Below are positions 5,578 to 25,812 of a DNA stretch of 64,000 bases, piece after piece. Made by a program: the position numbers and the translations under genes. Within the stretch, counting starts at the first letter, position 1. Every line of letters begins with the position of its first letter. The notes below the pieces were generated by a model that was given only the letters and a program-made list of their open reading frames with translations, was not told the DNA's origin and did not search any database. Origin of the DNA: Janibacter limosus (GTDB lineage: Bacteria > Actinomycetota > Actinomycetes > Actinomycetales > Dermatophilaceae); contig NZ_CP036164.1 of NCBI RefSeq assembly GCF_004295485.1, forward strand, positions 744,001 through 808,000, in the 5' to 3' direction.

Positions 5578-8162
5578 GCTCGGACCTCCAGGGTCGTGCC
5601 GGCGATGAGGACGGACCCCGAGGAGCGTTCCTCGGCGGTCGCGGGGCGGGCCTGCCCGCGCTCGCCCACGTACGCGAGCGAGTCGTCGACCGCGTCCGGC
5701 GCATTGACGAAGGGGGCGAAGCGCGCCAGCTTGTCGGGGTCGGCGAGCGTCGCGGCCCACTCGTCGCGGTAGCCCTCGACGTGGGCGGCCATCGCGGCGT
5801 CGAGGTCGGCGGCGATGCCCAGGCCGTCGTCGAGGACGACGGCGCGGATCGCGTCGATCCCCCCTTCGTGCTCCTCGATCCACGGTGCGGTGCGCTGCAG
5901 ACGGTCTGCGGTGCGGACGTAGTACATGAGGAAGCGGTCGATGGTGCGGACGAGCTCGTCGGTGCCGAGGTCCTCGACGAAGAGCTGGGCGTGCCGCGGG
6001 GTGAAGCCGCCGTTGCCGCCGACGTAGAGGTTCCACCCCTTGTCGGTCGCGATGATCCCGACGTCCTTGCCGCGGGCCTCGGCGCACTCGCGGGCGCACC
6101 CGGAGACGCCGAGCTTGATCTTGTGCGGGGAGCGCAGTCCGCGGTAGCGCAGCTCGAGGTCGATCGCCAGACCCACGGCGTCCTGCACGCCGAAGCGGCA
6201 CCACGTGGAGCCGACGCAGGACTTCACCGTGCGCAGCGACTTGCCGTAGGCGTGACCCGACTCGAAGCCCGCGTCGACGAGGCGCCGCCAGATCTGCGGC
6301 AGCTGGTCGATGCGTGCCCCGAAGAGGTCCACGCGCTGGCCGCCGGTGATCTTGGTGTAGAGACCGAAGTCCCTCGCGACCTCGCCGATCGCGATGAGCC
6401 CCTCGGGGGTCACCTCGCCACCGGGGATGCGCGGCACGACGGAGTAGGAGCCGTCCTTCTGCAGGTTGGCCATGACGAAGTCGTTGGTGTCCTGGATCGT
6501 CGCGCACTCGCCGTCGAGGATGTGCCCGGTGCCGAGCGAGGCGAGGATCGAGCCGATGACCGGCCGGCAGATGTCGCACCCGCGGCCCCTGCCGTGCCGC
6601 GCGATGATCTCGCTGAAGGTGGTCAGCCCCTGCACCCTTACCACGTCGAAGAGCTCGGCGCGGGAGAGGTCGAAGTGCTCGCACAGCGCCCGGCTGACCT
6701 CGACCCCGGCGGCCTCGAGCTCGCTCGTCACGAGCTTCTTGACCAGGGGCAGACAGGAGCCGCAGCTCGTCCCCGCCAGGGTGCAGGCCTTGACCCCGGC
6801 GAGGTCGGTGCAGCCCTCTTCGCAGACGGCAGCACGGATCTCGCCGGCGGTCACGTTGTTGCACGAGCAGACCGCCGCCTCGTCGGGCAGGTCGCCAGCG
6901 GGCGCCGGGGCCAGTCCCTCGGGCAGCAGGTGGGCGGCCGGGTCGCCGCCGAGGGCACGTCCGACCATGGGGCGGAGCGATGCATAGGCACTGGCGTCAC
7001 CGACGAGGATCCCTCCGCGCAGGGTCGTCGCGTCGTCGCTCATGACGAGCTTCTTGTAGACGCCGGCGACCGGGTCGGAGATGACGACCTCGAGCGCTCC
7101 CGGCTCCTGGGCGAAGGCATCGCCGAAGCTCGCGACGTCGACGCCGAGCAGCTTGAGCTTCGTCGACAGGTCGGCGCCGGGGAAGGTGCCCGCGCCGCCG
7201 AGCAGCCGGTCGGCGACGATCTCTGCCATCGTGTACCCGGGGGCGACGAGACCGAGGCAACGCCCACCGATGCAGGCCACCTCACCGATCGCCCAGATCG
7301 CGGGATCCGCTGTGGCGCAGGCGTCGTCGACGACGACCCCGCCGCGCTCGCCGACCTCGAGCCCCGCCTCGCGGGCGAGCTCGTCGCGCGGCCGCACCCC
7401 GACGGCGAAGATCACCACGTCGACGTCGATCGCCGGCCCCTCGCTGAACCTCATCCGCGAGACGGCGCCGCGCTCGCCGACGATCTTCGAGGTGGCCGTG
7501 GAGGTCCGCACGCTCACCCCGAGCCCCTCGATGAGCCGCTTGAGCGCCTCGCCGCCACCGTCGTCCACCTGCAGGGGCATGAGCCGCGGGGCGAACTCGA
7601 CGACCGTCGTGTCGACCTCCAGCGCGCGCAGCGCACCGGCCGCCTCGAGCCCCAGGAGGCCACCGCCGACGACCGCGCCGCGTACCGGTCGGTCGAGGTC
7701 GCCCCGGCGCTGCTCGACGAAGGCCCGCAGGTCGGCGACGTCGTCGATCGTGCGGTAGACGAAGGCTCCTCGCAGGTCCTTGCCCGGCACGGGAGGGACA
7801 GCCGCGTAGGAGCCGGTCGCGAGGACCAGCGCGTCGTAGCCGAGCACCTGGCCGGTGCTCGTCGTGACGGTCCGTGCCTGCCGGTCGATGGCCTCGGCGC
7901 GCACGCCGCGGCGCAGCGTGACGAGGGGGTCGTCCCACAGCTCCTGCCCCCCGAGGGCGAGGTCCTCCGGCTCGCGGCCGGTGAAGTAGGAGGTGAGCGC
8001 GACGCGGTCGTAGGGAGCGCGGGGCTCCTCGGCGAGCAGCGTGATCGCCCAGCGGCCCTCGCCGTCACGGGCGCGCAGTGCGTCGACGAGCCGGCGCGCG
8101 ACCATGCCTCCGCCGACGACGACGAGACGCTGCTGGGCGGTGGGTGCGGTGTCCTCTGGCAT
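5574..8162 (-). CDS. nirB: Nitrite reductase (NADH) large subunit
   Basis: An 862-aa assimilatory nitrite reductase with all parts in order: N-terminal FAD/NAD(P)-binding oxidoreductase (LVVVGGGMVARRL near residue 14, second GxGxxG at VVGGGLLGLEA near 155), BFD-type [2Fe-2S] domain with VCSCNNVTAGEI and TLAGTSCGSC near 420-460, further CDICRP cysteines, and C-terminal siroheme/[4Fe-4S] halves with CVGSTWC and SGCARECAEA. It reduces nitrite to ammonium with NADH together with NirD. ATG 8162 is 7 nt after TAACGT, whose TAA is the stop codon of the upstream gene, and a GlnR-type box lies just upstream, so nirBD-nnaR has its own promoter. Confidence 0.95.
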   Translation of the reverse strand: MPEDTAPTAQQRLVVVGGGMVARRLVDALRARDGEGRWAITLLAEEPRAPYDRVALTSYFTGREPEDLALGGQELWDDPLVTLRRGVRAEAIDRQARTVTTSTGQVLGYDALVLATGSYAAVPPVPGKDLRGAFVYRTIDDVADLRAFVEQRRGDLDRPVRGAVVGGGLLGLEAAGALRALEVDTTVVEFAPRLMPLQVDDGGGEALKRLIEGLGVSVRTSTATSKIVGERGAVSRMRFSEGPAIDVDVVIFAVGVRPRDELAREAGLEVGERGGVVVDDACATADPAIWAIGEVACIGGRCLGLVAPGYTMAEIVADRLLGGAGTFPGADLSTKLKLLGVDVASFGDAFAQEPGALEVVISDPVAGVYKKLVMSDDATTLRGGILVGDASAYASLRPMVGRALGGDPAAHLLPEGLAPAPAGDLPDEAAVCSCNNVTAGEIRAAVCEEGCTDLAGVKACTLAGTSCGSCLPLVKKLVTSELEAAGVEVSRALCEHFDLSRAELFDVVRVQGLTTFSEIIARHGRGRGCDICRPVIGSILASLGTGHILDGECATIQDTNDFVMANLQKDGSYSVVPRIPGGEVTPEGLIAIGEVARDFGLYTKITGGQRVDLFGARIDQLPQIWRRLVDAGFESGHAYGKSLRTVKSCVGSTWCRFGVQDAVGLAIDLELRYRGLRSPHKIKLGVSGCARECAEARGKDVGIIATDKGWNLYVGGNGGFTPRHAQLFVEDLGTDELVRTIDRFLMYYVRTADRLQRTAPWIEEHEGGIDAIRAVVLDDGLGIAADLDAAMAAHVEGYRDEWAATLADPDKLARFAPFVNAPDAVDDSLAYVGERGQARPATAEERSSGSVLIAGTTLEVRA

Positions 8163-9699: not shown

Positions 9700-11843
9700 G
9701 CGATGGCCTCCTGGGCGCTGGTGGGGGCGGCAGCCCGGGTGGCCCGGACCTCGACCGCGCAGACCTTGAGCTCCGGCATCGACGAGATCGGGTCGACTGC
9801 GTCGTTGGTGACGCGGTTGACGCTCCCCGTGCCGGGGTGGTGGAAGGGCATGAAGACCGTGTCCGCCCTGACCCGGTCGGTCACCCTGGCCGGTGCCGTG
9901 ACGCGGCCGCGGGCGGTGACGAGCTCGACCTCCTCGCCCTCCTCGACGTCCAGCCGGTGGGCGAGCAGCGGGTGGATCTCGACGAAGGGGGTGGGCTGGG
10001 CCGCGAGCAGTGCCGGCACCCGCCGTGTCTGCGCGCCCGACTGGTAGTGCTCGAGCACCCGCCCGGTGATGAGGAAGAGCGGGGCGTCGACTCGCAGCTC
10101 CTCGGCCGGCCCGACGTGGTCGACGGCAATGAACCGCGCCCTGCCGTCCGGGGTCGGGAAGCGGTCGAGGAGGGCGCGCGGGGTGCCCGGGTGAGGCGCC
10201 TGCCCTTCGTCGGTGGCGGGGCAGGGCCAGTGCAGGTCGGGCTCGCGGTCGAGGCGTGCGTGGGACAACCCGGAGTAGTCCGCGCGTCCGCCGGCGCTCG
10301 CCCGGGCCAGCTCGTCGAAGACCTCCGCCGGGTCGGTCGACCACGATCCCGGGGCCCCGAGGCGCCGGGCGAGCTGCGACCAGATCCACAGCTCGGAGAC
10401 GACTCCTGCCGGTGGGTCGATCGCCGCGCGGCGCCTGATGACGCGGCCCTCGAGGTTGGTCATCGTCCCCTCCTCCTCGGCCCACTGGGTGACGGGCAGG
10501 ACGATGTCGGCGAGCAGCGAGGTCTCGCTCGGGAAGATGTCGCAGACGACGAGCAGGTCGAGCGCCTGCAGACGGTCGGCGACGGCGTCCGCGCGCGGTG
10601 CGCTGACCACCGGGTTGGCCCCGTGCACGAGCAGGGCGCGCGGACCGCCGGGCCTGCCGAGTGCCTGCAGCAGCGCGACGGCCGGGAGCCCCGGACCGGG
10701 CAGGTCCTCGGGGTCGACACCCCACACGCCCGCGACGTGCTCGCGTGCCGCGGGGTCGGTGATCGACCGGTAGCCGGGCAGCTGGTCGGCCTTCTGCCCG
10801 TGCTCGCGGCCGCCCTGCCCGTTGCCCTGGCCGGTGAGGGCGCCGTAGCCGCTCCCTTCGCGCCCGACGAGCCCGAGCGCGAGGGCGAGGTTGATCGCGG
10901 CGGTGACCGTCGCGGTGCCCTGGCGGGACTGCTCGACCCCGCGTCCGGTGAGCACGTACGCGCCGGCCCCACCGCGGGCCGGGCTGGCGGCGGCCAGCAG
11001 CCGTGCGGCGCGACGCATCTCGTCGGCGGGGACCCCGCACACCTGCTCGGCGCGCTCGGGCCACCACGCGGCGACCGACCGGGCGAGGTCCTGCCAGCCG
11101 GTCGTGCGCGCGCTGAGATACGGCTCGTCGACGAGCCCCTCGGCGACGAGCACGTGGAGGAGGGCCTGCAGCACGACGAGGTCGGTGCCCGGCACCGGCT
11201 GCAGGTGCATCCCTCGCCCCTCCTCGGTGAGGTCGGCGGTGGCGGAGCGGCGCGGGTCCACGACGACGAGCCCTCCGGCATCGCGGGCGCCGGACAGGTG
11301 CGGGACGAAGGGGGGCATCGTCTCGGCGACATTGCTGCCGAGCAGCAGGACGGCGTGGGCAGCGTCGAGGTCGGCGACGGGGAAGGGCAGGCCCCGGTCG
11401 AGCCCGAGCGAGCGGTTGGCGGCGGCCGCGGCCGATGCCATGCAGAAGCGACCGTTGTAGTCGATGTTCTTGCTGCGCAGGGCGATCCGGGTGAACTTGC
11501 CGAGCTGGTAGGCCTTCTCGTTGGTGAGGCCGCCGCCGCCGAAGACCGCCACGGCGTCGGGTCCGTGCTCGACGGCGATGGTGCGCAGCCGGTCGGCCAG
11601 CAGGTCCAGCGCCACCTCCCAGGTCGCCTCGCGCAGCACGCCGTCCGCGTCACGCACGAGGGGCGCGGTCAGCCGGTCCGGCGCGCGGAGCAGCTCCGCG
11701 GAGGTGCCGCCCTTGCGGCACAGGCCTCCTCGGTTGGTCGGGAACTCGCGTCCGGCCACGACGAGGGGAGGGACGCTCCCTTCGTCACGGGTGAGGGTCA
11801 TCGCGCACTGCAGCGCGCAGTACGGGCAGTGGCTGTCGGTCAT
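9696..11843 (-). CDS. nasA: Assimilatory nitrate reductase, molybdopterin catalytic subunit
   Basis: A 715-aa molybdopterin oxidoreductase. The N-terminal [4Fe-4S] motif is CPYCALQC with the fourth Cys in GGLCRKG about 45 residues on; NGRFCMASAAAA near residue 125 is the region of the Mo-bis-MGD active site Cys; the C-terminal dinucleotide-binding domain begins near 590 (PLFLITGRVLEHYQSGAQT). Reduces nitrate to nitrite in the cytoplasm. It overlaps the transporter stop by one base (TGATG) and the electron-transfer gene by ATGA, so narK-nasA-nasC form one operon. Unlike Klebsiella-type NasA there is no C-terminal [2Fe-2S] domain; the separate BFD protein probably serves instead. Confidence 0.92.
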   Translation of the reverse strand: MTDSHCPYCALQCAMTLTRDEGSVPPLVVAGREFPTNRGGLCRKGGTSAELLRAPDRLTAPLVRDADGVLREATWEVALDLLADRLRTIAVEHGPDAVAVFGGGGLTNEKAYQLGKFTRIALRSKNIDYNGRFCMASAAAAANRSLGLDRGLPFPVADLDAAHAVLLLGSNVAETMPPFVPHLSGARDAGGLVVVDPRRSATADLTEEGRGMHLQPVPGTDLVVLQALLHVLVAEGLVDEPYLSARTTGWQDLARSVAAWWPERAEQVCGVPADEMRRAARLLAAASPARGGAGAYVLTGRGVEQSRQGTATVTAAINLALALGLVGREGSGYGALTGQGNGQGGREHGQKADQLPGYRSITDPAAREHVAGVWGVDPEDLPGPGLPAVALLQALGRPGGPRALLVHGANPVVSAPRADAVADRLQALDLLVVCDIFPSETSLLADIVLPVTQWAEEEGTMTNLEGRVIRRRAAIDPPAGVVSELWIWSQLARRLGAPGSWSTDPAEVFDELARASAGGRADYSGLSHARLDREPDLHWPCPATDEGQAPHPGTPRALLDRFPTPDGRARFIAVDHVGPAEELRVDAPLFLITGRVLEHYQSGAQTRRVPALLAAQPTPFVEIHPLLAHRLDVEEGEEVELVTARGRVTAPARVTDRVRADTVFMPFHHPGTGSVNRVTNDAVDPISSMPELKVCAVEVRATRAAAPTSAQEAIA

Positions 11844-13201
11844 CAGATCCCCTCGCCCGCCAGCCGCGCACCACGACGCAGGTAGACCGCCCAGGTGAGC
11901 GTCGCCATGACGACGTAGGCGGTGATGAAGACACCGATCGCCGGCACGAGGGAGTCGTAGGCGGTCGTCGACATCGCGAAGCCGCGCGGCACGAGGAACC
12001 CGCCGACGGCCCCGACGGCTCCGGCGATGCCGATGCACCCGGCGGCGCTGCGTCGCGCGGTGGCGAGCCCGGCGCCGTCACGGGCGTCGGCGCGGAAGAC
12101 GGCCGGGATCATCCGGTAGGTCGCGCCGTTGCCGATCCCTGCCCCGACGAAGAGGACGAGGAAGGCGGTGAGGAAGAGCGCGAAGGAGTGCACCGACAGG
12201 GCGAGGATCGCTGCCCCGGCCGCGGTGCCCATGACTGCGAAGGCCGTGATCGTCACCCGGGCACCCCCGAGGCGGTCGGCGACCATGCCGCCGACCGGGC
12301 GGCTGGCGGCCCCGAGGACCGCCCCGAGGAAGGCGAGCGAGGTCGGGGTCTCGGGGAACTGCGTCGTGAGCAGCGTGGGGAAGGCGACGGAGTACCCGAT
12401 GAAGGAGCCGAAGGTGCCGATGTAGAGGAAGGAGATGATCCACGTGTGCGGGTGCGTCGCGGCCCGGGCCCAGCTGCGGTGGTCGGAGCGGGCCGTGCCG
12501 AGGTTGTCCATCCCGCGCCATGCGCCGATGGCGGCGAGCAGCACGAGGGGCACGAAGACCAGGCCGGCGCGCTCGAGGTGGATCCCGGCGCCGACGGCGA
12601 TGATCGCGGGGATGGCGAGCTGGACGATGCCGGTGCCGAGGTTGCCGCCGGCAGCGTTCAGGCCCAGCGCCTTCCCCTTCTCCGCCTCGGGGAAGAAGAA
12701 GGAGATGTTGGTCATCGACGAGGCGAAGTTGCCGCCGCCGAACCCGGCGAGGGCGGCGATGGCGAGCAGCCCTGCGAAGGGGGTCTCCGGCCGGCCCACG
12801 ACCCACGCCAGGGACAGGGTGGGCAGCAGCAGGAGCAGCGCCGACACGATCGTCCAGTTGCGGCCGCCCACGATCGGGACCATGAAGGTGTACGGCACCC
12901 GCAGGAAGGCACCGACGAGGCTGGGTACCGCGATGAGCCAGAACTGCTGGTCGAGGGTCAGCGCGAAGCCGGCCGCGGGCAGCTGCGGCACGACGACGCT
13001 CCACAGCGCCCACACGCAGAAGCCGAGGAGCTCGGCGAGCACCGACCAGCGCAAGTTGCGCTGTGCGACGGCGCGGCCACCCGCGGCCCAGAAGCCGGCG
13101 TCCTCCGGGTCCCAGTGGTCGATCCACCGCCCGGCGCGTCGGACGGGTCCCGTGGGGGCCGTGGTGGTGTCGGGCGAGACGACAGTGGTCGGCGAGGTCA
13201 T
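11843..13201 (-). CDS. narK: MFS nitrate/nitrite transporter
   Basis: A 452-aa major facilitator of the NarK/NasA group with about 12 hydrophobic helices. The nitrate signature is visible in helix 5 (AGFGGGNFASSMTNISFFFP) and again in shortened form in the second half (FVGAGIGNGATYRMIPAVF). The conserved substrate-contact Arg is likely in LRVPYTFMVP. The N-terminal 25 residues are Thr/Pro-rich and cytosolic. First gene of the nitrate operon; ATG 13201 lies 6 nt after CAGTCT, and a GlnR-type box (13224-13261) sits 10 nt further upstream. Direction (nitrate import alone or nitrate/nitrite exchange) cannot be read from sequence. Confidence 0.92.
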   Translation of the reverse strand: MTSPTTVVSPDTTTAPTGPVRRAGRWIDHWDPEDAGFWAAGGRAVAQRNLRWSVLAELLGFCVWALWSVVVPQLPAAGFALTLDQQFWLIAVPSLVGAFLRVPYTFMVPIVGGRNWTIVSALLLLLPTLSLAWVVGRPETPFAGLLAIAALAGFGGGNFASSMTNISFFFPEAEKGKALGLNAAGGNLGTGIVQLAIPAIIAVGAGIHLERAGLVFVPLVLLAAIGAWRGMDNLGTARSDHRSWARAATHPHTWIISFLYIGTFGSFIGYSVAFPTLLTTQFPETPTSLAFLGAVLGAASRPVGGMVADRLGGARVTITAFAVMGTAAGAAILALSVHSFALFLTAFLVLFVGAGIGNGATYRMIPAVFRADARDGAGLATARRSAAGCIGIAGAVGAVGGFLVPRGFAMSTTAYDSLVPAIGVFITAYVVMATLTWAVYLRRGARLAGEGI

Positions 13202-13223
13202 GCGGCGAGACTGGCAAGCGCGT

Positions 13224-13261
13224 GTTTCGCGCTCCCACGGTCGCCGTTAATCCCGTGTTAC
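13224..13261 (-). promoter_or_regulatory. GlnR-type nitrogen control box upstream of narK
   Basis: Minus-strand order GTAAC-N6-TTAAC-N6-CGTGG-N6-GAAAC. First and last subsites match the GlnR consensus fully, the second in its AAC, the third poorly. The box lies 10 nt upstream of the presumed -10 (CAGTCT, 13208-13213), the same gap as at nirB, so both operons look co-regulated. Confidence 0.65.
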
Positions 13262-13313
13262 CCGCCCCGCACGTCCCCGACCACGCACCTGTGAGGGGGA
13301 CGAAGGGGTGGGT

Positions 13314-13460
13314 GCGCACGACCTTAAGGAGATGCGGGTTGGGTGCGCACGACCTTAAGGAGATGCAGGGTGGGTGCGCACGACCTTAAGGAAATGTGGG
13401 TTGGGTGCGCACGACCTCAAGGAAATGCGGGTTGGGTGCGCACGACCTTAAGGAGATGCG
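13314..13460. repeat. Five-copy phased array of the CCTTAAGG dyad
   Basis: Five direct units start at 13314, 13345, 13376, 13407 and 13438 with an exact 31-bp period. Each carries the dyad GCAnnnCCTTAAGGnnnTGC or a one- to two-base variant (CCTCAAGG in unit 4, GGAAATG in units 3 and 4). The linker GGGTTGGGTGC is nearly constant within this array. It lies between the pncB stop (13466) and the narK GlnR box. The same core with other linkers recurs at 23227-23405. The even spacing near three helical turns and the symmetric core suggest protein-binding sites. Confidence 0.9.
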
Positions 13461-13465
13461 AAGGG

Positions 13466-14779
13466 TCAGGGGGTCTCGGTGAGGAAGATCGTCTCGACCG
13501 CCGGCTGTCCCTGGCTCAGCTGGTGCGCGGAGCGCGGCAGCTCGGCGACCGAGGCATCGTGTCGGGCCCGCCCGGCCTCGAGCGTCGCGTGCTCACCCCC
13601 CACGACCTGGCCGTCGGCCACGAGTCGCACGAGCAGGTCGCGGTCGTCGGCGTCGCCGACCGGCTGCTCGCCGATGCCCAGGACCTCGGCCTCGACGACA
13701 CCCAGCGGGTTGCGCCGCCGCAGCGCGTACTTGCGCCCACCGATCGAGATCTTGTCCTTGCTCTTCTTGGCGACCCCGATCATCGTGCCGGCGTCGTCCT
13801 CACGGGCGACGAGCTTGTAGACCATCGAGGCCGTCGGGTGGCCGGAGCCGGTGACCACGCGGGTCCCGACGCCATAGGTGTCGACCGGCGCCGCAGCCAG
13901 CGCGGCGATCGCGTACTCGTCGAGGTCGGAGGTGACGACGATCTTGGTCTCGGTCGCGCCCAGCCCGTCGAGCTGCTCGCGGACCTCGCTCGCCTGGACC
14001 ACGAGGTCCCCCGAGTCGAGACGCACCCCACCGAGGGAGGTGCCGCCGACCTCGATGGCGGTGTTCACCCCTTCGGTCACGTCGTAGGTGTCCACGAGCA
14101 GCGTGGTGCCGGTGCCGAGGGAGGCGATCTGCGCCTCGAAGGCCTCGCGCTCGCTCTCGTGGAGCAGGGTGAAGGCATGCGCCGCGGTCCCGCCCGTGGG
14201 CACGCCGTAGCGCCGCCCCGCCTCGAGGTTGGAGGTGGAGGAGAAGCCGGCGATGTACGCCGCCCGGGCCGCCGCCACCGCTGCACCGTCGTGGGTGCGC
14301 CGGCTGCCCATCTCGATGACCGGCCGCGTCCCGGCCGCGCCGGTCATCCGTGAGGCCGCCGAGGCGACCGCGGAGTCGTGGTTGAGGATCGACAGGACGA
14401 CGGTCTCGAGGATCACTCCGTGCGCGAAGTCGGACTCGACGACGAGCACGGGGGAGTAGGGGAAGTAGGTCTCACCCTCGGCATAGCCCCACACGTCCCC
14501 GTCGAAGCGGTAGTCGGCGAGGAAGTCCAGCGTCATGGCGTCGACCACATCGTGCGTGCGCAGGTGCTCCAGCTCCGCGTCGCCGAAGCGGAAGTCCTCG
14601 ATGGCGTCGAGCACCCGCCCGACCCCCGCGAGGACGCCGTAGCGCCGGCCGGACGGCAGTCGCCGGGCAAAGGTCTCGAAGACGCACCGACGCGATGCGG
14701 CGCCGCTGTGGAGGGCGGCCTGGAGCATCGTCAGCTCGTAGTGATCGGTGAGCAGCGCAGTGCTGGGTCGGATCGTCAC
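13466..14779 (-). CDS. pncB: Nicotinate phosphoribosyltransferase
   Basis: Makes nicotinate mononucleotide from nicotinate and PRPP in NAD salvage. The 437-aa protein opens with TALLTDHYELTMLQAAL, the usual PncB start, and holds the type II PRTase barrel with FSSTSNLEAGRRYGVPTGGT near 215, LVDTYDVTEGV near 260, GGVRLDSGDL near 285 and YGVGTRVVTGSG near 345. I choose GTG 14779 because it lies 7 nt after TAGAGT, half of a shared bidirectional promoter with clpS; GTG 14788 is possible but falls on that -10. In mycobacteria pncB1 also diverges from clpS. Confidence 0.93.
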   Translation of the reverse strand: MTIRPSTALLTDHYELTMLQAALHSGAASRRCVFETFARRLPSGRRYGVLAGVGRVLDAIEDFRFGDAELEHLRTHDVVDAMTLDFLADYRFDGDVWGYAEGETYFPYSPVLVVESDFAHGVILETVVLSILNHDSAVASAASRMTGAAGTRPVIEMGSRRTHDGAAVAAARAAYIAGFSSTSNLEAGRRYGVPTGGTAAHAFTLLHESEREAFEAQIASLGTGTTLLVDTYDVTEGVNTAIEVGGTSLGGVRLDSGDLVVQASEVREQLDGLGATETKIVVTSDLDEYAIAALAAAPVDTYGVGTRVVTGSGHPTASMVYKLVAREDDAGTMIGVAKKSKDKISIGGRKYALRRRNPLGVVEAEVLGIGEQPVGDADDRDLLVRLVADGQVVGGEHATLEAGRARHDASVAELPRSAHQLSQGQPAVETIFLTETP

Positions 14780-14786
14780 GCTGGCC

Positions 14787-14796
14787 ACTCTAGGGT
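14787..14796. promoter_or_regulatory. Overlapping divergent -10 elements for pncB and clpS
   Basis: The 10-bp ACTCTAGGGT reads TAGGGT rightward (14791-14796) and TAGAGT leftward (14792-14787). Each is followed by exactly 7 nt and a GTG start (14804 and 14779), so both genes are predicted to make leaderless mRNAs from -10 elements that share their central TA. Confidence 0.7.
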
Positions 14797-14803
14797 GGAG
14801 GGC

Positions 14804-15094
14804 GTGTCCATCGCCCCAGCCGAGCAGCAGACGAGCGAGCCCGACGTCGTCGAGGCCGTCGACACCCCGTGGATCACCTTGGTGTGGAACGACCCGGTCA
14901 ACCTCATGTCCTACGTGACCTGGGTCTTCCAGACGCACTTCGGCTATCCCAAGCAGCACGCCGAAAGACTGATGATGGACGTCCACCTCAAGGGGCGCGC
15001 CGTCGTGGCGCACGGGCCCAAGGAGCAGATGGAAGCCGACACCGAGGCGTTGCAGGGCTACGGCCTGTGGGCGACCTTCCAGAAGGACGTCTGA
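14804..15094 (+). CDS. clpS: ATP-dependent Clp protease adaptor ClpS
   Basis: A 96-aa ClpS, the N-end-rule adaptor that hands substrates to the ClpC/ClpP protease. It has a disordered acidic start and then the compact fold with TPWITLVWNDPVNLMSYV, AERLMMDVHLKGRAVVAHG and a C-terminal WATFQKDV. The residues that form the N-degron pocket (N and D of WNDPVN, the M of LMMDVH) are present. Start GTG 14804 is leaderless by the -10 spacing. The next gene overlaps its stop (TGATG). Confidence 0.92.
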   Translation: MSIAPAEQQTSEPDVVEAVDTPWITLVWNDPVNLMSYVTWVFQTHFGYPKQHAERLMMDVHLKGRAVVAHGPKEQMEADTEALQGYGLWATFQKDV

Positions 15095-15732
15095 TGGCGC
15101 ACGCCTTCACCGCCGACGGCGAGGAGCTCGTCGCGACCATGGACGAGGACGAGCGAGCCGTCGTGGTCGGGCTGTGCCTGCAGGTCATGGACTTGGTCGC
15201 TCCCGCCAGCACCACGACGAAGGGGGAGCACGCCGACCCCTTCGAGGCGATCGTGGCCGGGCTGGGTGACCTCGCGACGGACACCGAGGAGGGCGCGGCG
15301 GGCCTCGAGGTGCCCGACCGGGCCTTCGGCCTCGACCACGACCGCGACCCGGCGCTTGACCGGCTCTTCCCGACCGGCAACCGCGAGGACGAGCAGGAGG
15401 CGGCGGAGTTCCGCCGCTTCACCGAGCAGGGACTGCGCCAGCGCAAGCACCAGGGGCTGGCGACGACCGTGCGCACCCTCGAAGCGGCCAGCGACGACCG
15501 GTGGGTCGTCACGCGGACGCAGGCCCCGGCCGTGCTCGTCGCGCTCACCGACATCCGGCTCGTCATGGGTGAGCGGCTCGGGCTGCGCACAGACGAGGAC
15601 GCGACCCGGCTCGAGGAGCTCATCGAGACCCTCGACGCGGACGACCCCGCGGTCTTCGCGCTGAGCATCTACGACTTCCTCACCCGGCTGCAGGAGTCGC
15701 TGACCCAGGCACTCGTCGGGGACGACGAGTGA
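15094..15732 (+). CDS. DUF2017 family protein
   Basis: A 212-aa, mainly helical, acidic protein of the actinobacterial DUF2017 family, which nearly always follows clpS. No catalytic motif is visible; recognisable stretches are [19 protein letters not shown] in the middle and [19 protein letters not shown] near 150. It overlaps both neighbours (TGATG with clpS, GTGA with murI), so it belongs to the clpS-murI operon. Function unknown; the tight link to clpS suggests a role around proteolysis or the cell wall. Confidence 0.85.
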
Positions 15733-16547
15733 GCGCGCCGGCAGCGGACCAGCCGATCGGCATCTTCGACTCAGGGCTCGGCGGCCTGACCGTCGCCCGC
15801 GCCGTGCTCGACCAGCTGCCCCACGAGTCCGTCGCCTATCTCGGCGACACGGCGCGAGCGCCCTACGGCCCCAGACCGATCGCGCAGACTCGTGCGTACG
15901 CGCTCGAGTGCCTGGACCGCCTTGTCGACCACGGTGTCAAGCTCCTCGTCATCGCCTGCAACACGGCCAGTGCGGCGGTGCTCCACGACGCGCGCGAGCG
16001 CTACGACGTGCCGGTCGTCGAGGTCATCCGGCCGGCCGTGCGCCGGGCCGTCCTGGCCACCCGCAACCACCGCGTCGGCGTGATCTCGACGACGGGTACG
16101 CACCGCTCACGGGCCTACCTGGACGCCTTCGCGGCCGCCCCGCAGACCCAGGTCATCTCCCAGCCCTGCCCGCGGTTCGTGGAGCTCGTCGAGGCCGGGA
16201 CGACGTCCGGCCCGGAGGTGCTCGAGGTCGCGCGGGGCTACCTCGCCCCCCTTCGGCAGGCGGAGGTGGACACTCTCGTGCTCGGGTGCACCCACTACCC
16301 GCTGCTCACCGGCGCGCTCTCCTACGTCATGGGCGAAGGTGTCACGCTCGTCTCATCGGCCGAGGAGACCGCCAAGGACGTCTACCGTGTCCTTGCGGAC
16401 CTCGACCTGCTGCGCCCCGAGACCCTCCCGGACCCCACCCACGGGTTCACGACCACGGGAGACCCGGAGCTCTTCCGGTCGCTGGCCCGCCGCTTCCTCG
16501 GACCCGAGGTCGCGGATGTCTTCGCCACCTTGGGAGAAGAGCGTTGA
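15729..16547 (+). CDS. murI: Glutamate racemase
   Basis: Converts L-glutamate to D-glutamate for peptidoglycan. The 272-aa protein has the two catalytic cysteines in their usual settings: [12 protein letters not shown] near residue 77 and [14 protein letters not shown] near 188, plus the substrate loops [15 protein letters not shown] and [14 protein letters not shown] start overlapping the DUF2017 stop; its own stop overlaps a TTG start of the MBL gene. Confidence 0.95.
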
Positions 16548-17311
16548 GGCTCACCGTCGTCGGTTGTTCCGGCTCCTTCGCAGGACCGGACTCACCCGCC
16601 TCGTGCTACCTCGTGACCGCCGAGCACGAGGGCCGTACCTGGCGCCTCGTCGTCGACCTGGGCAACGGCGCGCTCGGCGCGCTGCAGCGACACATCGACC
16701 TCGCCGACATCGACGCGGTCCTGATCAGCCACCTGCACCCCGACCACTGCATCGACCTGACCGGTCTGTACGTCACCCGCACCTACCGACCTCAGGGCGC
16801 ACTCACCGAGCGGCTCCCGGTCTACGCCCCGGCCGGGGCCGGGGAGCGCCTCGCGGCGGCCTACGAGGGGATCGACGAAGGGGGGATGACCGGCGTCCTC
16901 GACTTCCGCCGGATCTCCACGAGCGTGCCGACGCACATCGGCCCCTTCGTCGTGCGCACCTTCCTCGTCGACCACCCTGTGGAGGCCTACGGGTTCCGGG
17001 TCGAGGCCGACGGCTCGGTCCTCGCCTACAGCGGCGACACCGATGCCTGCGACGCCCTCGGTCCGCTCTTCGCCGGCGCCGACCTCGTGCTCGCCGACTC
17101 GGCCTTCGTCGAGGGGCGTGACGAGGTGCGCGGTGTCCACCTCACGGGGCGACGTGCTGCAGAGGCCGCGCTGGCTGCCGGCGGGGTCGGGCGCCTGATG
17201 CTCACGCACATCCCGGCATGGAACGACCCGGAGGTTTGCCGGGCGCAGGCGGCCGAGGTCTGGCCCGGTGAGGTCGAGCTGGCCCGTCCGGACACGACCT
17301 ACGAGGTGTGA
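16544..17311 (+). CDS. MBL-fold phosphodiesterase, Rv1339-like (predicted cyclic nucleotide hydrolase)
   Basis: A 255-aa metallo-beta-lactamase-fold hydrolase. Metal motif [10 protein letters not shown] near residue 63, later ligands in [11 protein letters not shown] near 165 and THIPAWND near 225. The murI-MBL-rph-rdgB order matches the mycobacterial Rv1338-Rv1341 block, where Rv1339 has been reported to lower cyclic AMP, so a cAMP phosphodiesterase role is plausible. The TTG start at 16544 overlaps the murI stop (TTGA); no other start fits the fold start [12 protein letters not shown]. In this genome four extra genes separate it from rph. Confidence 0.82.
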
Positions 17312-17376
17312 GCCTCCCGCCGCTGGCGGAATCTGTCGTGCTCGGAGTGGTGACGGCGTCGAGCCGGTCGTGGGGC

Positions 17377-17460
17377 GCGTGTCGTACTGCAGTTCGCCTG
17401 CCCGCCGACGAGGAATCAACGATCTGGAGGGGCCGGACCCTGAACTGCAGTCCGACACGC
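17377..17460. repeat. Inverted repeat with 46-nt centre, MITE- or terminator-like
   Basis: Arms 17377-17395 (GCGTGTCGTACTGCAGTTC) and 17442-17460 are inverted copies with 18 of 19 bases matching. They flank a 46-nt centre without a gene. It lies in the 161-bp gap between the convergent MBL and HAD genes, at the left edge of a four-gene insert. It could be a large hairpin terminator or a short non-autonomous element; no target duplication is obvious. Confidence 0.6.
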
Positions 17461-17472
17461 CCTGAGGAGAGG

Positions 17473-18105
17473 TCAGACGAGGTCGAGCAGCGGGAGCAGG
17501 CTCTCCTCCAGGTGGTGGGGGGAGGCCGTCACGAGCCGCTCGCGGTCGTGGGTGGCACCCGGCCGACAGACGGCGTAGGTCGACAGGTCGGCTGCCCTCC
17601 CGGCCTTGATGTCATGGGTCGTGTCGCCGACCATCCAGGTCCCTTGGGCGCCGAGCTCCGCGAGGGCCCGGTGGATGACCTCCGGCGACGGCTTGGCGGG
17701 GAAGTCATCAGTGCCCTGGACGAGGTCGAGGTGGTCAGTCAGCCCGAGGGCTGCCACGAGGTCGCGGGCTATCGGGGTGCGCTTCGTCGTCGTCACCGCC
17801 AGCAGGTACCCCTTGGCCCGCAGCGACTCGAGCACCTCGACCGTGTCGCCGAAGACATGTGAGCTCTGGGTGAACCGCGTGGGGTAGATGCGTCGGTAGG
17901 ACCCGCTGAGGGCTGAGACGTCGCTGCCCGGCGCCAGCTCGGTGAACATGTCTTCGAGAGGCAGACCGACCAGGCTCCGGATCGGGGCGTCGCCCGGGTC
18001 GGCCAGGCCGTGCTCCACCAGGGAGGCGGCGATGCTGCCGATGATGTCGGGGAGGGAGTCGACGAGCGTACCGTCGAGGTCGAAGCAGATGGCGGGTCGA
18101 GTCAC
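17473..18105 (-). CDS. HAD-superfamily phosphatase, phosphoglycolate phosphatase-like
   Basis: A 210-aa HAD hydrolase. Motif I is CFDLDGTLVDS at the N-terminus, motif II VTTTKR near 108, Lys in FPAKPSPEVIHRAL near 147 and motif IV WMVGDTTHDIKAGRAA near 170. A helical cap domain sits between motifs I and II, as in the Gph/PhnX subgroup. GTG 18105 is 7 nt after TAACCT on the minus strand, the leaderless pattern. The natural substrate (phosphoglycolate, a sugar phosphate or a nucleotide) cannot be told. Confidence 0.85.
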   Translation of the reverse strand: MTRPAICFDLDGTLVDSLPDIIGSIAASLVEHGLADPGDAPIRSLVGLPLEDMFTELAPGSDVSALSGSYRRIYPTRFTQSSHVFGDTVEVLESLRAKGYLLAVTTTKRTPIARDLVAALGLTDHLDLVQGTDDFPAKPSPEVIHRALAELGAQGTWMVGDTTHDIKAGRAADLSTYAVCRPGATHDRERLVTASPHHLEESLLPLLDLV

Positions 18106-18160
18106 GATGCCGAGGTTAACCGGGTCGACGCGGGCACCCCCCGGCTGGTTGGCTGGCCCC

Positions 18161-19192
18161 ATGGACGCGCGACTGCCCGCCCCCCTTCGTCCCGGTGACA
18201 CGATCGCCATCACCGCACCGAGCAGCGTTGTCGCCCAAGCACTCTGGCCCCGCCTCGACGCCGCGATCGCGTACCTGCGGCGTCGCGGCTTCGAGGTGCT
18301 CGAGGGGGTCTGCCTGCGTGACGACGCCGACCACCATGTCAGTGCCTCGCGGGAGGCCCGCGCCGACGAGCTGATGGCCCTGCTCGTCGACCCGGACATC
18401 GCCGCAGTCGTGCCGCCGTGGGGTGGCGAGACCGGCATCGACGTGCTGCCGTACCTCGACTTCGACCTGCTCGCCGAGTGCGAGCCCTGCTGGTACGTGG
18501 GCTTCTCCGACATCACGACCACGATGCTGCCGCTGACCCTGCGCTCCGGGTGGGCGACGCTCCACGGGCAGAACCTCATGGACACGCCCTATGCGCCCGC
18601 GTCCGGCCTGCTCCACTGGCTCGACGTCGCCATGAGCGAAGGGGGTGAGCTCACCCAGACCGCTGCGACGCACCGGCGTGCGGAGGGCTGGGACGACTAC
18701 GTCGCCGACCCGCAGGTCGACGAGCTCACGCTCACGGACCCGACCCGCTGGTCGCTCCTCGGGGGCGGGACGGCTTCCTTCGCCGGCCCGCTCGTCGGTG
18801 GGTGCATCGAGGTGCTCTCGCCGCTGGTCGGCACCCCCTTCGCCGCCGTGCCCGCGTGGGCCGCCGAGCAGTCGCAGCCGCCGATCGTCCTGCTCGAGGC
18901 CGCGGAGGGCAATGCCTTCGAGATCGCGCGGGACCTGCACGGGATGCGGCTCGCGGGGTGGTTCGACCGGTGCTCAGGAGTGCTCGTCGGCCGTACGCCC
19001 GCACCGGACGCCCCCACCCTCACCCAGCACGACGCGGTGCGCGACGCCCTCGGAGACCTCGACGTGCCGGTCGTGCTCGACGTCGACTTCGGCCACCAGC
19101 AGCCGATGATGCCGCTCGTGCTGGGCGCTCCGGCCCGGGTCGACGTCGGACCGGACGGTCAGCGGATCACGCAGGACCTGGGGCGATCCTGA
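18161..19192 (+). CDS. S66 family LD-carboxypeptidase / MccF-like serine peptidase
   Basis: A 343-aa S66 peptidase. The start (LPAPLRPGDTIAITAPSS) and the nucleophile elbow YVGFSDITTT near residue 118 are typical; catalytic Glu is likely in LLEAAEGNAFEIARDL near 248 and His in DVDFGHQQPMMPL near 310. LdcA members trim the D-Ala from murein tetrapeptides, while MccF members inactivate microcin-type peptides; sequence alone does not separate them. Its 3' end overlaps the convergent alpha/beta hydrolase by 26 bp. Confidence 0.83.
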   Translation: MDARLPAPLRPGDTIAITAPSSVVAQALWPRLDAAIAYLRRRGFEVLEGVCLRDDADHHVSASREARADELMALLVDPDIAAVVPPWGGETGIDVLPYLDFDLLAECEPCWYVGFSDITTTMLPLTLRSGWATLHGQNLMDTPYAPASGLLHWLDVAMSEGGELTQTAATHRRAEGWDDYVADPQVDELTLTDPTRWSLLGGGTASFAGPLVGGCIEVLSPLVGTPFAAVPAWAAEQSQPPIVLLEAAEGNAFEIARDLHGMRLAGWFDRCSGVLVGRTPAPDAPTLTQHDAVRDALGDLDVPVVLDVDFGHQQPMMPLVLGAPARVDVGPDGQRITQDLGRS

Positions 19193-20021
19193 CCCGATCG
19201 AGCACCCAACGTGCGATGCGCTCGCCGATGATCTCGGGGGACCGGGCGAAGGAGTAGTGGTTGACCGGCTTGCCGGGGTCGCCCGCGGCCTTGGTGAAGG
19301 TGAACCTCTCCACGTCGGCGCTGGCGAAGAGCGCGACGAGCGCGTCGACGGCGGCCGGGGGAGCAAGGGTGTCGTTGTCGAGGTCGACGACGAGCATCGG
19401 GAGCCGTCGAGCACGCAGGCCGGTCGCCACGTCCTGGCCACGAGGAGCCAGCCGACCGGTGCGGGCGAAGGCCGCCCACTCCCGCATGAGCGTCATCGGC
19501 TGGGTGCCGCCGAAGCCGAACCGCGCGCCCGGCCAGTACCCCAGGACGCGCGAGAGCGTCCCGATGAGCTGGGTCTGGGTCAGCGTCTTGAGCCCGTGCT
19601 GGGACCGCCAGTGGGTGCTCCCCGACCCGATGAGCACGACGGCGTCGACGGCCGGCTGGTCGCCCGCCAGGTGAGCGGCGAGGACGTGGCCACCGAGGGA
19701 GTGGCCGAGCGCGACGACCGGGCCGTCGTGCCCTTCGCGCACGGACCCCACGACGGCCGGCAGCCACTCGTGGGCCAGCTCCGTGTAGCCGAGGTCCCGA
19801 CCGCGACCGGCGAGCGGATGTGCCCCACCCTGGCCCGGGTAGTCGGCGACGCCCGCCGTCACCCCGTGGCGCGCGAGCTCGTCGACGAAGGGCCCGTAGT
19901 AGCCCGCCGGCACGCCCATGGCGGGCAGCACGAGGACGAAGGGGGTCGGCCCGTCGGCCCGGGCGACGTGCAGGGCGGTGGTGCCGCCGTCGGGCAGGGT
20001 GATCTCGCTGTGCTGGTCCAC
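19167..20021 (-). CDS. Alpha/beta hydrolase
   Basis: A 284-aa serine hydrolase of the alpha/beta fold. Nucleophile elbow is ALGHSLGGHVLAAHL near 105, oxyanion strand FVLVLPAMGVPAGYYG near 31, acid residue in VVDLDNDTLAPP near 212 and His in KPVNHYSFARSPE near 255. No signal peptide. GTG 20021 is 7 nt after TACCCT, so it is predicted leaderless. Substrate unknown; such proteins include lipases and thioesterases. Confidence 0.8.
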   Translation of the reverse strand: MDQHSEITLPDGGTTALHVARADGPTPFVLVLPAMGVPAGYYGPFVDELARHGVTAGVADYPGQGGAHPLAGRGRDLGYTELAHEWLPAVVGSVREGHDGPVVALGHSLGGHVLAAHLAGDQPAVDAVVLIGSGSTHWRSQHGLKTLTQTQLIGTLSRVLGYWPGARFGFGGTQPMTLMREWAAFARTGRLAPRGQDVATGLRARRLPMLVVDLDNDTLAPPAAVDALVALFASADVERFTFTKAAGDPGKPVNHYSFARSPEIIGERIARWVLDRVRIAPGPA

Positions 20022-20047
20022 GTCGGTGAGGGTAGACGGTGGTGCCG

Positions 20048-21793: not shown

Positions 21794-21826
21794 GTCGCCA
21801 TCATCGCCGATCGTTAGCCTGAGCCC

Positions 21827-22585
21827 ATGACTGACACCACCCCCCGCCACGACGGACGCACCCCCGAGCAGCTGCGCGAGGTGCGGATCACCCGCAACTG
21901 GCTCGACCACGCGGAGGGCTCGGTGCTCGTCGAGTTCGGTCGCACCCGCGTGCTCGTCGCCGCGTCCTTCGAGTCCGGCGTGCCGCGGTGGCTCAAGGGG
22001 CAGGGGACCGGCTGGGTCACGGCCGAGTACGAGATGCTGCCGCGCAGCACCAACACCCGCAGCGGTCGCGACTCCCGCAAGGGCAAGGTCGGTGGCCGCA
22101 CCCACGAGATCTCCCGGCTGATCGGCCGCAGCCTGCGCGCGGTCATCGACACCAAGGCCCTCGGGGAGAACACGATCGTCCTCGACTGCGACGTCCTCCA
22201 GGCCGACGGTGGTACCCGCACCGCAGCGATCACGGGTGCCTATGTCGCGCTCGTCGACGCCGTCGAGGACGCCCGCAAGCGGGGGCTGATCGCCCCGGGC
22301 GCCAAGCCCCTCACCGGTTCGCTGGCCGCGGTCTCGGTCGGCGTCGTCGGTGGACGTGCGGTCTGCGACCTCGACTACCCCGAGGACTCCACGGCGGAGA
22401 CCGACATGAATGTCGTCATGACCGGCACCGGCGAGTTCATCGAGGTGCAGGGCACGGCCGAGGGCGCTCCCTTCGACCGCGACCTGCTGGGTCAGCTGCT
22501 CGACCTCGCGACCACCGGCTGCGCCGACCTCACGGTCAGGCAGCAGGAGGCGCTCGCGGAGACCCCGCGGGAGCGCGTGCTGTGA
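21827..22585 (+). CDS. rph: Ribonuclease PH
   Basis: A 252-aa phosphorolytic 3' exonuclease that trims tRNA precursors. Conserved elements: [18 protein letters not shown] early, [13 protein letters not shown] near 65, [17 protein letters not shown] near 90 (Arg residues for phosphate and RNA), [20 protein letters not shown] near 125 and the [18 protein letters not shown] catalytic Asp stretch near 180. ATG 21827 is 6 nt after TAGCCT (21815-21820), so it is predicted leaderless. Overlaps rdgB by GTGA. Confidence 0.96.
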
Positions 22586-23238
22586 CCCGGCGGGTCGTCC
22601 TCGCGACGCACAACGAGCACAAGGTGAAGGAACTCCAGCAGATCCTCGCGGAAGCCCTTGGTGCCGAGGCCGAGCTGGGCCTCGAGATCGTCTCGATGGC
22701 GGCCTTCCCGGAGGTCGGTGAGATCCCTGAGACTTCAGTGACCTTCGCTGGCAACGCCCGGCTCAAGGCCGAGCACGTCGCGATGCACACCTCGCTCCCG
22801 GCGCTCGCGGACGACTCGGGCCTGGCCGTCGAGGTCCTCGGCGGCAGCCCGGGGATCTTCTCCGCCCGGTGGTCCGGGCTGCACGCGGGGGAGGACCTGC
22901 CACGCGCCGAGAAGGACCGCCGCAACCTCCAGCTGCTCCTCGACCAGCTCGCGGACGTCCGCGACGAGCACCGCCGCGCGGTCTTCCGTTGCGCGGCCGT
23001 CCTGGCGATCCCGGGCGGCACGACCGTCACGAGCGAAGGGGAGGTCCCCGGCGTGATCGTGCGGGAGCCCTTGGGGGACAACGGCTTTGGATACGACCCG
23101 ATCTTCGTCCCGGACGGTGGCACCCGCACCCTCGCGCAGTACAGCGACGTGGAGAAGAACGCGATCAGTCACCGCGGCCGCGCCTTCCGCGCGATGGTCC
23201 CGCTCCTGCGCGAGCACCTGAGCACCGCACGACCTTAA
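22582..23238 (+). CDS. rdgB: XTP/dITP diphosphatase (Ham1/RdgB)
   Basis: Hydrolyses non-canonical purine triphosphates (ITP, XTP) to keep them out of nucleic acids. The 218-aa protein has [18 protein letters not shown] at the start, [12 protein letters not shown] near 58, [18 protein letters not shown] near 75, [13 protein letters not shown] near 175 and [11 protein letters not shown] near 200, all family hallmarks. GTG start inside the rph stop. The last residues TARP and the TAA stop are provided by the first unit of the repeat array that begins at 23227. Confidence 0.95.
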
Positions 23239-23405
23239 GGAGATGCGCCCAGGCGGTCGCACGACCTCAAGGAGATGCGGCCCCGCAGTCGCACGACCTT
23301 AAGGAGATGCGCCCAGTCAGCCGCACGACCTCAAGGAGATGCGCCCCCGCAGTCGCACGACCTCAAGGAGATGCGCCGTCAGCCGCACGACCTTAAGGAG
23401 ATGCG
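23227..23405. repeat. Six-copy phased array of the CCTTAAGG dyad
   Basis: Core units begin at 23227, 23259, 23291, 23323, 23355 and 23385 (periods 32, 32, 32, 32, 30 bp). The core is the same as in the 13314 array (GCAnnnCCTTAAGGnnnTGC, with CCTCAAGG in units 2, 4 and 5), but the linkers are different and alternate between a type ending in GCAGTC and one ending in CAGCC, hinting at a 64-bp dimeric unit. The first core overlaps the end of rdgB and supplies its TAA stop; the last ends 11 bp from the tRNA-Leu 3' end. Confidence 0.9.
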
Positions 23406-23415
23406 ACTCAGGGGT

Positions 23416-23502
23416 TGGTGCCGAAGGCGGGACTTGAACCCGCACACCCTTACGGGCACGTGGACCTAAACCACGCGCGTCTGCCAATTCCGCCACTTCG
23501 GC
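23416..23502 (-). tRNA. tRNA-Leu (anticodon UAG)
   Basis: Acceptor stem GCCGAAG/CTTCGGC, long variable arm typical of leucine tRNA, anticodon TAG within GGTTTAGGTCC, T-loop GGTTCAAGTCC and an encoded CCA end. Reads leftward, convergent with rdgB and the repeat array. Confidence 0.97.
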
Positions 23503-23523
23503 TCGGTCAGGCAGTCTAGGCGG

Positions 23524-23982: not shown

Positions 23983-23988
23983 CGCAGC

Positions 23989-25505: not shown

Positions 25506-25506
25506 C

Positions 25507-25812
25507 TCAGTCGCGGCGGCGGACGACGAGGCGCAGCACGAGCCACATGAGGGCGCCGGTGAGCAGGACGCCGACGATGCCGGCCACCCCGCCGGAGACG
25601 AAGCCGCTGTCGACCCCCAACGTCTCGTAGTCGGCGAAGGGGGACCCGTCACTGCCGTGCTCCCCGGCCGAGTCGGCGAAGCCGAGGGTCTCGGCGACGT
25701 GCTCGAGCCCGTCGGGGTGGCCGGACGCCCAGAAGCTCACGACGGCAGCGAGCAGCAGGCAGATGGCCAGGCCGACGAGGACGAGGGTGCGGGTGGACAC
25801 GCGCTGCTTCAC
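25507..25812 (-). CDS. cbiN: PDGLE domain (CbiN-like) small subunit
   Basis: A 101-aa membrane protein with two helices (LVLVGLAICLLLAAVVSFWA and GVAGIVGVLLTGALMWLVLR) and between them an outside loop that opens with the PDGLE motif (SGHPDGLEHVAETLGF). PDGLE proteins are the CbiN/NikN subunits of cobalt or nickel importers, needed for metal loading. Overlaps the CbiM stop region and is followed 1 bp later by cbiQ. Confidence 0.88.
   Translation of the reverse strand: MKQRVSTRTLVLVGLAICLLLAAVVSFWASGHPDGLEHVAETLGFADSAGEHGSDGSPFADYETLGVDSGFVSGGVAGIVGVLLTGALMWLVLRLVVRRRD

What the first reader, a model, noticed from the sequence alone, without database searches (positions are those of the whole stretch)
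13314..13460. Phased array of a 20-bp dyad (GCAnnnCCTTAAGGnnnTGC) next to narK
Seen: five copies at an exact 31-bp period, about three helical turns, so all dyads face one side of the DNA. The core is symmetric, while the linker is constant only inside this array. The AT-rich TTAA centre is notable in such a GC-rich genome. The array starts about 53 bp upstream of the narK GlnR-type box. Inference: a binding platform for a dimeric DNA-binding protein (chromosome organiser, partition-like or silencer), or a mobile short repeat family. I know of no named system with this layout.
Basis: partly seen in the sequence, partly recalled or inferred. Interest (0 to 1): 0.75.

Follow-up and report, generated by a model that had tools for sequence, protein, structure and literature searches.

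The report
Phased gene-end repeats with species dialects
In the bacterium Janibacter, about 65 arrays of a 20-letter mirrored DNA word, mostly spaced about three helical turns apart, sit mostly where genes end, and a related species carries a different word of the same layout at many of the same places, which suggests an unknown DNA-binding protein that likely reads them.

Summary
The array is real: five dyads at an exact 31-bp period (13316-13459). It is one of about 65 arrays (253 units in the stretches fetched) in this 3.5-Mb Janibacter genome; 258 sites match with at most 2 mismatches. Of 62 intergenic arrays 35 lie between convergent genes, and 47 of 57 with a neighbouring stop codon lie within 20 bp of it. 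Neighbour spacings are 20, 30-32 or 40-44 bp, with one exception (61). Three arrays lie inside genes, in frame. A related species often carries another dyad of the same scaffold, GCA-N3-CC-N4-GG-N3-TGC, at orthologous places: a species 'dialect' (8 of 16 loci). In cydD the swap keeps position and frame. Seven ISL3-family insertions sit exactly at dyad centres, with CCTTAAGG duplicated. This resembles REP/BIME repeats, but the GTAG/CGTC tag, the RAYT transposase and the head-to-head layout are missing. Most likely it is a dimer-binding platform at gene ends; the protein is unknown. Selfish repeats and RNA hairpins remain open. The array is not needed next to narK: the related species keeps that promoter region without it.

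The parts
13316..13335 (+). dyad unit 1 (GCACGACCTTAAGGAGATGC, consensus)
13347..13366 (+). dyad unit 2 (consensus)
13378..13397 (+). dyad unit 3 (GCACGACCTTAAGGAAATGT)
13409..13428 (+). dyad unit 4 (GCACGACCTCAAGGAAATGC)
13440..13459 (+). dyad unit 5 (consensus), ending 6 bp from the pncB stop codon
13466..15013 (-). pncB, nicotinate phosphoribosyltransferase; its 3' end abuts the array
11843..13201 (-). narK-like nitrate/nitrite MFS transporter downstream; its promoter region is conserved in G101, which lacks the array
23227..23404 (+). second array of the same family, six units (23227, 23259, 23291, 23323, 23355, 23385); one type-B dyad sits at the orthologous place in G101
21988..23238 (+). 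open reading frame whose C-terminal part matches RdgB/HAM1-type pyrophosphatase; its stop overlaps the first dyad of array 2 by 12 bp
23416..23502 (-). tRNA-Leu (TAG) on the other side of array 2

Best explanation
This is one array of a REP-like family of 20-bp dyads, found in many Janibacter species, that sit in mostly head-to-tail, helically spaced arrays mostly at gene ends, where they are likely bound by a so far unknown dimeric DNA-binding protein. Shown: the scaffold GCA-N3-CC-N4-GG-N3-TGC, the spacing classes, the gene-end placement, the sharing of loci between species, and a different dyad word (type B TTG/MTAK/CAA instead of type A CGA/TTAA/AGA) at many of the same loci. Inferred: each dyad would be a dimer site (two half-sites GCAYNNCC, 4 bp apart); neighbours on one face of the helix would bind cooperatively; between convergent genes the complex would act as a transcription or topology boundary; and the species dialects would arise when the protein's preference drifts and the sites follow, while copy number changes by local tandem duplication.
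For: Copy number and specificity: 258 sites, reversed-pattern control 2; CTTAAG occurs 202 times in dyads and 3 times elsewhere in 443 kb of fetched stretches, which were chosen around arrays. Spacing: 188 neighbour spacings in 65 arrays: 4 at 20, 169 at 30-32, 14 at 40-44, 1 at 61; of 27 per-array spacings outside 30-32 that I compiled, 26 lie within 2.1 bp of a multiple of 10.5. Placement: convergent 35 of 62 against 33 of 237 other intergenic spaces, divergent 5 of 62 against 73 of 237 (the 237 are obtained by subtraction from 299). No orientation bias to transcription in tandem-gene spaces (9 same, 10 opposite, 3 mixed). The type-A unit is a weak RNA hairpin (-1.5 and -4.5 kcal/mol by strand), type B a strong one (-11.5 and -12.1), so the shared feature is the half-site scaffold, not a stem. 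Dialects: type B 146 sites in G101, 118 in G152, 92 in G117, 15 in G000; exactly GCATTTCCCTAGGGAAATGC 35 times in G151. At 16 G000 loci bridged in G101 stretches chosen by position alone, G101 has type B at 8, type A at 1, none at 7, at 4 or at 2 allowed mismatches, while 13 of 224 G101 intergenic spaces carry B. In CydD the insert reads HDLKEM in G000 and HSPMAMQ in G101, between the same flanking residues and in the same dyad frame.
Against: No protein was identified and no binding was tested. Three arrays lie inside genes, where a bound barrier would be awkward. Linkers between arrays are more alike than letter-shuffled ones (0.50 against 0.31), so part of the constant spacing may be common descent. 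The 9 distinct spacing values outside 30-32, taken once each, give only p about 0.07. Most type-A units keep the same asymmetric sequence, which looks like copying rather than selection by a symmetric dimer. At the finding's own locus and six other bridged loci G101 has no dyad, so the site is dispensable there. The arrays fold into RNA structure far better than shuffles.
Confidence: 0.42

Rival explanations
1. Selfish or neutral repeat family (like REPINs or Rickettsia palindromic elements): units spread by copying and tandem duplication, tolerated only at gene ends and in-frame sites, with no host function.
For: Copy number varies strongly between species and loci; in-frame insertions in genes; fixed asymmetric unit; linkers partly alike between arrays; seven ISL3-family insertions in arrays; the finding's locus is empty in G101.
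Against: No Y1/RAYT transposase: 0 of 16 Janibacter genomes, control positive in 5 of 14; no match of the array in the phage or plasmid collections; loci stay occupied between species while the word changes, in cydD in the same frame; helical spacing classes are not expected.
Confidence: 0.32
2. RNA-level element: the dyads are 3'-end hairpins acting as bidirectional terminators or mRNA protectors between convergent genes.
For: Median distance to the nearest stop codon 5 bp; types B and C are perfect 8-bp stems with 4-nt loops; arrays with at least 3 units fold far better than shuffles (mean z -6.5 over 96 strand folds, 90 of 96 below -2; repeated palindromes are expected to); at G101 loci without dyads other hairpins occur, for example at the pncB end and at the 988455 locus.
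Against: The type-A unit, including single units in G101, forms only a weak hairpin, and perfectly palindromic versions of it stay rare (6 of 213 scaffold matches in G000 stretches); arrays inside genes; no orientation bias; spacing classes unexplained.
Confidence: 0.2
3. DNA uptake signal of a naturally competent genus (like DUS/USS), with species dialects.
For: Dialects by species, gene-end placement, consistent reading frame in genes.
Against: Only about 65 clusters in 3.5 Mb, roughly one per 55 kb, and tandem phased arrays; typical DUS density and layout, and competence of the genus, are recalled or assumed, not tested.
Confidence: 0.04

Closest known systems
REP / BIME repeats (GTAG- and CGTC-tagged families)
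   Same: 20-40-bp palindromes in high copy, mostly between convergent or unidirectional genes and, between convergent genes, mostly under 20 bp from both gene ends; some intragenic; many families differing between species (passages of PMC3733652)
   Different: No GTAG/CGTC tag seen, no RAYT gene in 16 Janibacter genomes (CGTC types also lack an associated transposase), head-to-tail arrays with a 3-turn period rather than head-to-head dimers; a word search of that paper's main text found no 'Actinobacteria'
REP-targeted insertion sequences (IS1397, ISPsy8, ISPpu9/10 and others)
   Same: All copies of some IS elements sit in the repeat, ISPsy8 always at the same point (passages of PMC1525189)
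   Different: Here two ISL3-family elements; that paper names IS3, IS110, IS4, IS256 and IS5 families, and a word search found no 'ISL3' in it
Rickettsia palindromic elements (RPE)
   Same: Palindromic repeats inserted in frame in genes and also elsewhere (passages of PMC10969869)
   Different: RPEs are about 150 bp; here 20-bp dyads in phased tandem arrays
DUS/USS uptake-sequence dialects (recalled)
   Same: Lineage-specific words of one motif at gene ends
   Different: Far fewer clusters, phased tandem arrays, different motif

Membership tests
REP (GTAG/CGTC super-families) | short (20-40 bp) palindromic repeat in high copy | tested here: met
   20-bp dyad, 258 sites; palindromic only in part for type A, fully in the stems of types B and C
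REP (GTAG/CGTC super-families) | unpaired GTAG or CGTC tag at one foot | tested here: not met
   letter counts of the linkers next to the dyad show G at the start and TGC at the end for type A, no such tag; other dialects not counted
REP (GTAG/CGTC super-families) | intergenic, close to 3' ends, enriched between convergent genes | tested here: met
   35 of 62 convergent; 47 of 57 within 20 bp of a stop
REP (GTAG/CGTC super-families) | head-to-head dimers predominate | tested here: not met
   51 of 62 multi-unit arrays have all units in one orientation, 11 mixed
REP with RAYT (GTAG type) | Y1/RAYT tyrosine transposase in the genome | tested here: not met
   PF01797: 0 of 16 Janibacter genomes; control positive in 5 of 14
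BIME | binding of gyrase, IHF or Pol I | not testable with these tools
   needs binding experiments
Rickettsia palindromic elements | in-frame insertion into protein genes | tested here: met
   three clear cases: CydD, IucA/IucC-type synthetase, GT87
Rickettsia palindromic elements | unit of about 150 bp | tested here: not met
   20-bp units
CRISPR | repeats separated by unique spacers | tested here: not met
   linkers on average 0.85 identical within arrays
ISL3 insertion sequences (for the seven IS in arrays) | DDE_Tnp_ISL3 transposase and 8-bp target duplication | tested here: met
   PF01610 E 1.1e-55 and 4.4e-50; CCTTAAGG on both sides; that 8 bp is typical of the family is recalled

The most novel reading that the evidence does not exclude
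A fast-evolving reader-and-word system: a rapidly changing DNA-binding protein in each Janibacter species reads phased dyad arrays at fixed gene-end loci, and when its preference shifts the genome's whole set of sites is rewritten in register, giving species-specific dialects of one scaffold.
Probability: 0.25. Interest if true: 0.87.

Novelty: new variant of a known kind. Interest (0 to 1): 0.62.

Why it matters
In the passages read, REP-like repeats carry tags, one super-family goes with RAYT transposases, and they lie predominantly in Proteobacteria. Here an actinobacterial genus has an untagged family, without a RAYT, with a helical period and with species dialects found at the same loci, even in frame inside a gene. 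That makes it possible to ask directly whether such repeats are maintained by a binding protein or by copying, and it gives a natural set of sites for finding that protein.

Tried and rejected
narK regulation: rejected, since G101 keeps the promoter region but has no array. RAYT mobilisation: no PF01797 in 16 genomes. Known RNA family: in 11500-26000 Rfam finds only the tRNA above its gathering score. Plasmid or phage origin: no match for the array. Wider spread: the exact dyad is in 5 of 149 family genomes, own included, 4 of them Janibacter; the generic scaffold pair at 31 bp is in 1 of 396 order genomes, the own one (only two other Janibacter were in that sample and other spacings were not searched). 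ISL3 junctions in other Janibacter: no exact one in 15; the 1-mismatch matches there are about as frequent as in the reversed-pattern control. Literature: 'Janibacter' + 'tandem repeat' + 'genome' (8 papers listed); a five-term palindrome and convergent-gene search (none); REP + Actinobacteria + RAYT (none); Janibacter + palindrom + repeat + intergenic (10 of 4,476 listed): nothing about this repeat in the titles and abstract starts listed. That the peptide HDLKEM is selected: unlikely, as G101 has another peptide at the same CydD site. The distribution relative to the replication origin was not tested. Dropped before counting: clusters whose best unit has more than 2 mismatches, and clusters with a single weak unit.

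Full report
OBSERVATION. The array is present as described: five dyads at 13316, 13347, 13378, 13409 and 13440. The window has 11 matches at up to 2 mismatches against 0.05 expected; the other six form a second array at 23227-23404. The window lies at 744001-808000 of a 3,545,254-bp single-contig genome. Exact matches of a 24-mer in named genomes all come from one Janibacter metagenome assembly (5 contigs; records near the window's own genome may be left out there), and stretches of that assembly align to this genome at about 90 percent, so I call the host Janibacter.

GENOME-WIDE FAMILY. GCACGACCTYAAGGARATGC with at most 2 mismatches has 153 + 105 sites in the own genome, reversed-pattern control 1 + 1. 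Place lists were cut short, so I combined several and fetched stretches around the arrays. In these I count 65 arrays with 253 units, sizes 1 to 9. Arrays without an exact site may be missed. Insertions split some arrays in two, so a few loci count twice. Of 62 multi-unit arrays, 51 have all units in one orientation and 11 are mixed.

SPACING. The 188 neighbour spacings are 20 (4), 30 (19), 31 (84), 32 (66), 40 (1), 41 (5), 42 (7), 44 (1), 61 (1). In G101 stretches: 30 (6), 31 (5), 32 (2), 37 (1), 41 (2), 42 (1), 43 (1), 44 (2). Of 27 per-array spacings outside 30-32 that I compiled (not the further rows), 26 lie within 2.1 bp of a multiple of 10.5 and the Rayleigh p is about 3e-7; these values are not independent, and the nine distinct values alone give p about 0.07. 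Linkers are 0.85 identical within arrays, 0.50 between arrays, 0.31 if letters are shuffled, so some spacing conservation may be descent.

PLACEMENT. With a simple codon-usage gene caller of my own, 66 clusters were placed: 62 intergenic, 4 overlapping predicted genes. Contexts: convergent 35, tandem 22, divergent 5. The stretches hold 299 intergenic spaces in all, 68 convergent and 78 divergent; subtracting the arrays leaves 237 with 33 and 73 (Fisher p 4e-11 and 1e-4; the subtraction assumes that each array space was among the 299). Of 57 arrays with a flanking stop codon, 47 lie within 20 bp of it, median 5 bp. In tandem spaces orientation shows no bias (9 same, 10 opposite, 3 mixed).

INSIDE GENES. 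Three arrays clearly lie in frame inside genes: CydD (NCBIfam TIGR02857 above cut-off), an IucA/IucC-type synthetase near its C-terminus, and a GT87-type protein. A fourth overlaps the predicted start of CydC and is ambiguous. All four read HDLKEM, and spacings there are 30 or 42, multiples of three. The commonest variants, at unit positions 10 and 16, are synonymous in this frame, yet occur also in intergenic arrays.

RELATIVES AND DIALECTS. Type A sites (at most 2 mismatches, both strands summed): G000 258, G155 69, G101 37, G144 22, G152 11, G153 9, G075 6, G150 4, four genomes 1 and four 0, 16 in all. Some single hits look like coincidences in one shared, apparently coding stretch (L088-L090, L098; judged by sequence only). 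Ten G101 stretches were fetched because they hold type A. Nine of them align across a G000 array locus; the tenth (L129) aligns only beside it, and its dyad falls outside the G000 stretches fetched. At these loci G101 mostly has core CTCAAG where G000 mostly has CTTAAG, with linkers sometimes kept. Stretches of G101 chosen only by G000 position showed a different dyad: type B, GCATTGCC-MTAK-GGCAATGC, with spacings 30-31, 37 and 41-44. Type B counts (one strand): G101 146, G152 118, G117 92, G132 35, G151 35, G144 24, G000 15, G153 6, G075 2, G155 1, six genomes 0. The 35 in G151 are all GCATTTCCCTAGGGAAATGC (type C), which is two steps from the pattern, so the search could not reach its variants. 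Of 65 G000 arrays, 25 could be bridged in G101: among the 16 in stretches chosen by position, 8 B, 1 A, 7 none; among the 9 in stretches chosen for type A, 8 A, 1 B (with 4 mismatches, with 2, same result). One of the 8 (166965) spans 651 bp in G101. As a background, 13 of 224 G101 intergenic spaces of at least 25 bp carry B (computed before the last nine stretches were fetched). CydD has HDLKEM repeats in G000 and HSPMAMQ repeats in G101 between the same flanking residues and in the same frame of the dyad. At the finding's own locus G101 has narK and pncB with the promoter region conserved and no dyad; a CCCTGC-GGAT-GCAGGG hairpin lies there instead. Two G000 loci hold A and B side by side at 32 and 36 bp.

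INSERTION SEQUENCES. Six 1433-bp copies, 100 percent identical, and one different element, both with ISL3-family transposases (PF01610), sit exactly at dyad centres with CCTTAAGG on both sides. One further isolated end at 3165694 is not in a dyad but next to CTTAAG. In the fetched stretches CTTAAG occurs 202 times in dyads and 3 times elsewhere, so preference for that word may explain the targeting. No exact junction exists in 15 other Janibacter.

RNA OR DNA. The type-A unit folds at -1.5 or -4.5 kcal/mol depending on strand, type B at -11.5 and -12.1, type C at -10.4. Arrays fold better than shuffles (mean z -6.5 over 96 strand folds), as repeated palindromes should. The pairing stem is therefore not shared by all dialects, while GCA, CC, GG and TGC are (scaffold counts). 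With the spacing and the lack of orientation bias this favours a DNA-level dimer site, but does not prove it.

KNOWN RELATIVES. PMC3733652 (passages) describes REPs with GTAG or CGTC tags, 8-9-bp stems with 4-5-nt loops in the CGTC type, placement mostly under 20 bp from gene ends between convergent genes, intragenic units, mainly head-to-head dimers and no associated transposase for CGTC types. PMC1525189 (passages) shows IS elements of five families targeting REPs. PMC10969869 (passages) reviews in-frame Rickettsia palindromic elements. The present family shares placement and IS targeting, but not the tag, the RAYT gene (0 of 16) or the dimer layout. I file it as a new variant of the REP-like kind, not as a member of the tagged super-families.

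VERDICT. Shown: spaced dyad arrays at gene ends, a scaffold shared by many species of the genus, dialects at shared loci, ISL3 landing at dyad centres. Inferred: a dimeric protein reading the dyads and a boundary role. The selfish-repeat reading is close behind.

Noticed in passing
L050, L041, L055, L060 (two copies), L083: Six 100 percent identical 1433-bp ISL3-family copies, each flanked by CCTTAAGG: a very recent burst of insertions into dyads; a different ISL3 element did the same at L047.
   Followed up: yes
L046, genome position about 330303-331970: A 1.7-kb insertion with inverted ends (CCCGGATCCACCG / CGGTGGATCCGGG) and a CTGAA repeat on both sides lies in the linker of an array that is uninterrupted in G101.
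   Followed up: partly
L151 near 13139, L148 near 11485, L042 near 1610: Another dispersed hairpin-like repeat, CCCTGAGGAGG...CGTCTCGAAGGG, in both G101 and G000.
   Followed up: no
L153 near 7207-7250 (G101): A type-B dyad at the centre of a longer palindrome (about CCGTTCGTCT - dyad - AGACGAACGG), a long hairpin; some other type-B sites show parts of the same flanks.
   Followed up: no
flanks of several arrays, e.g. L073, L081, L084, L123: C-rich (ccccccttc) and/or G-rich (gaagggggg) stretches flank several arrays, as if the array sat in the loop of an older hairpin.
   Followed up: no
window 23416-23502: tRNA-Leu (TAG) directly beside the second array.
   Followed up: no
G151, many contigs: 35 copies of exactly GCATTTCCCTAGGGAAATGC, a third dialect (the search could reach only this variant); spacings such as 32, 41, 43 and 63 bp.
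   Followed up: no
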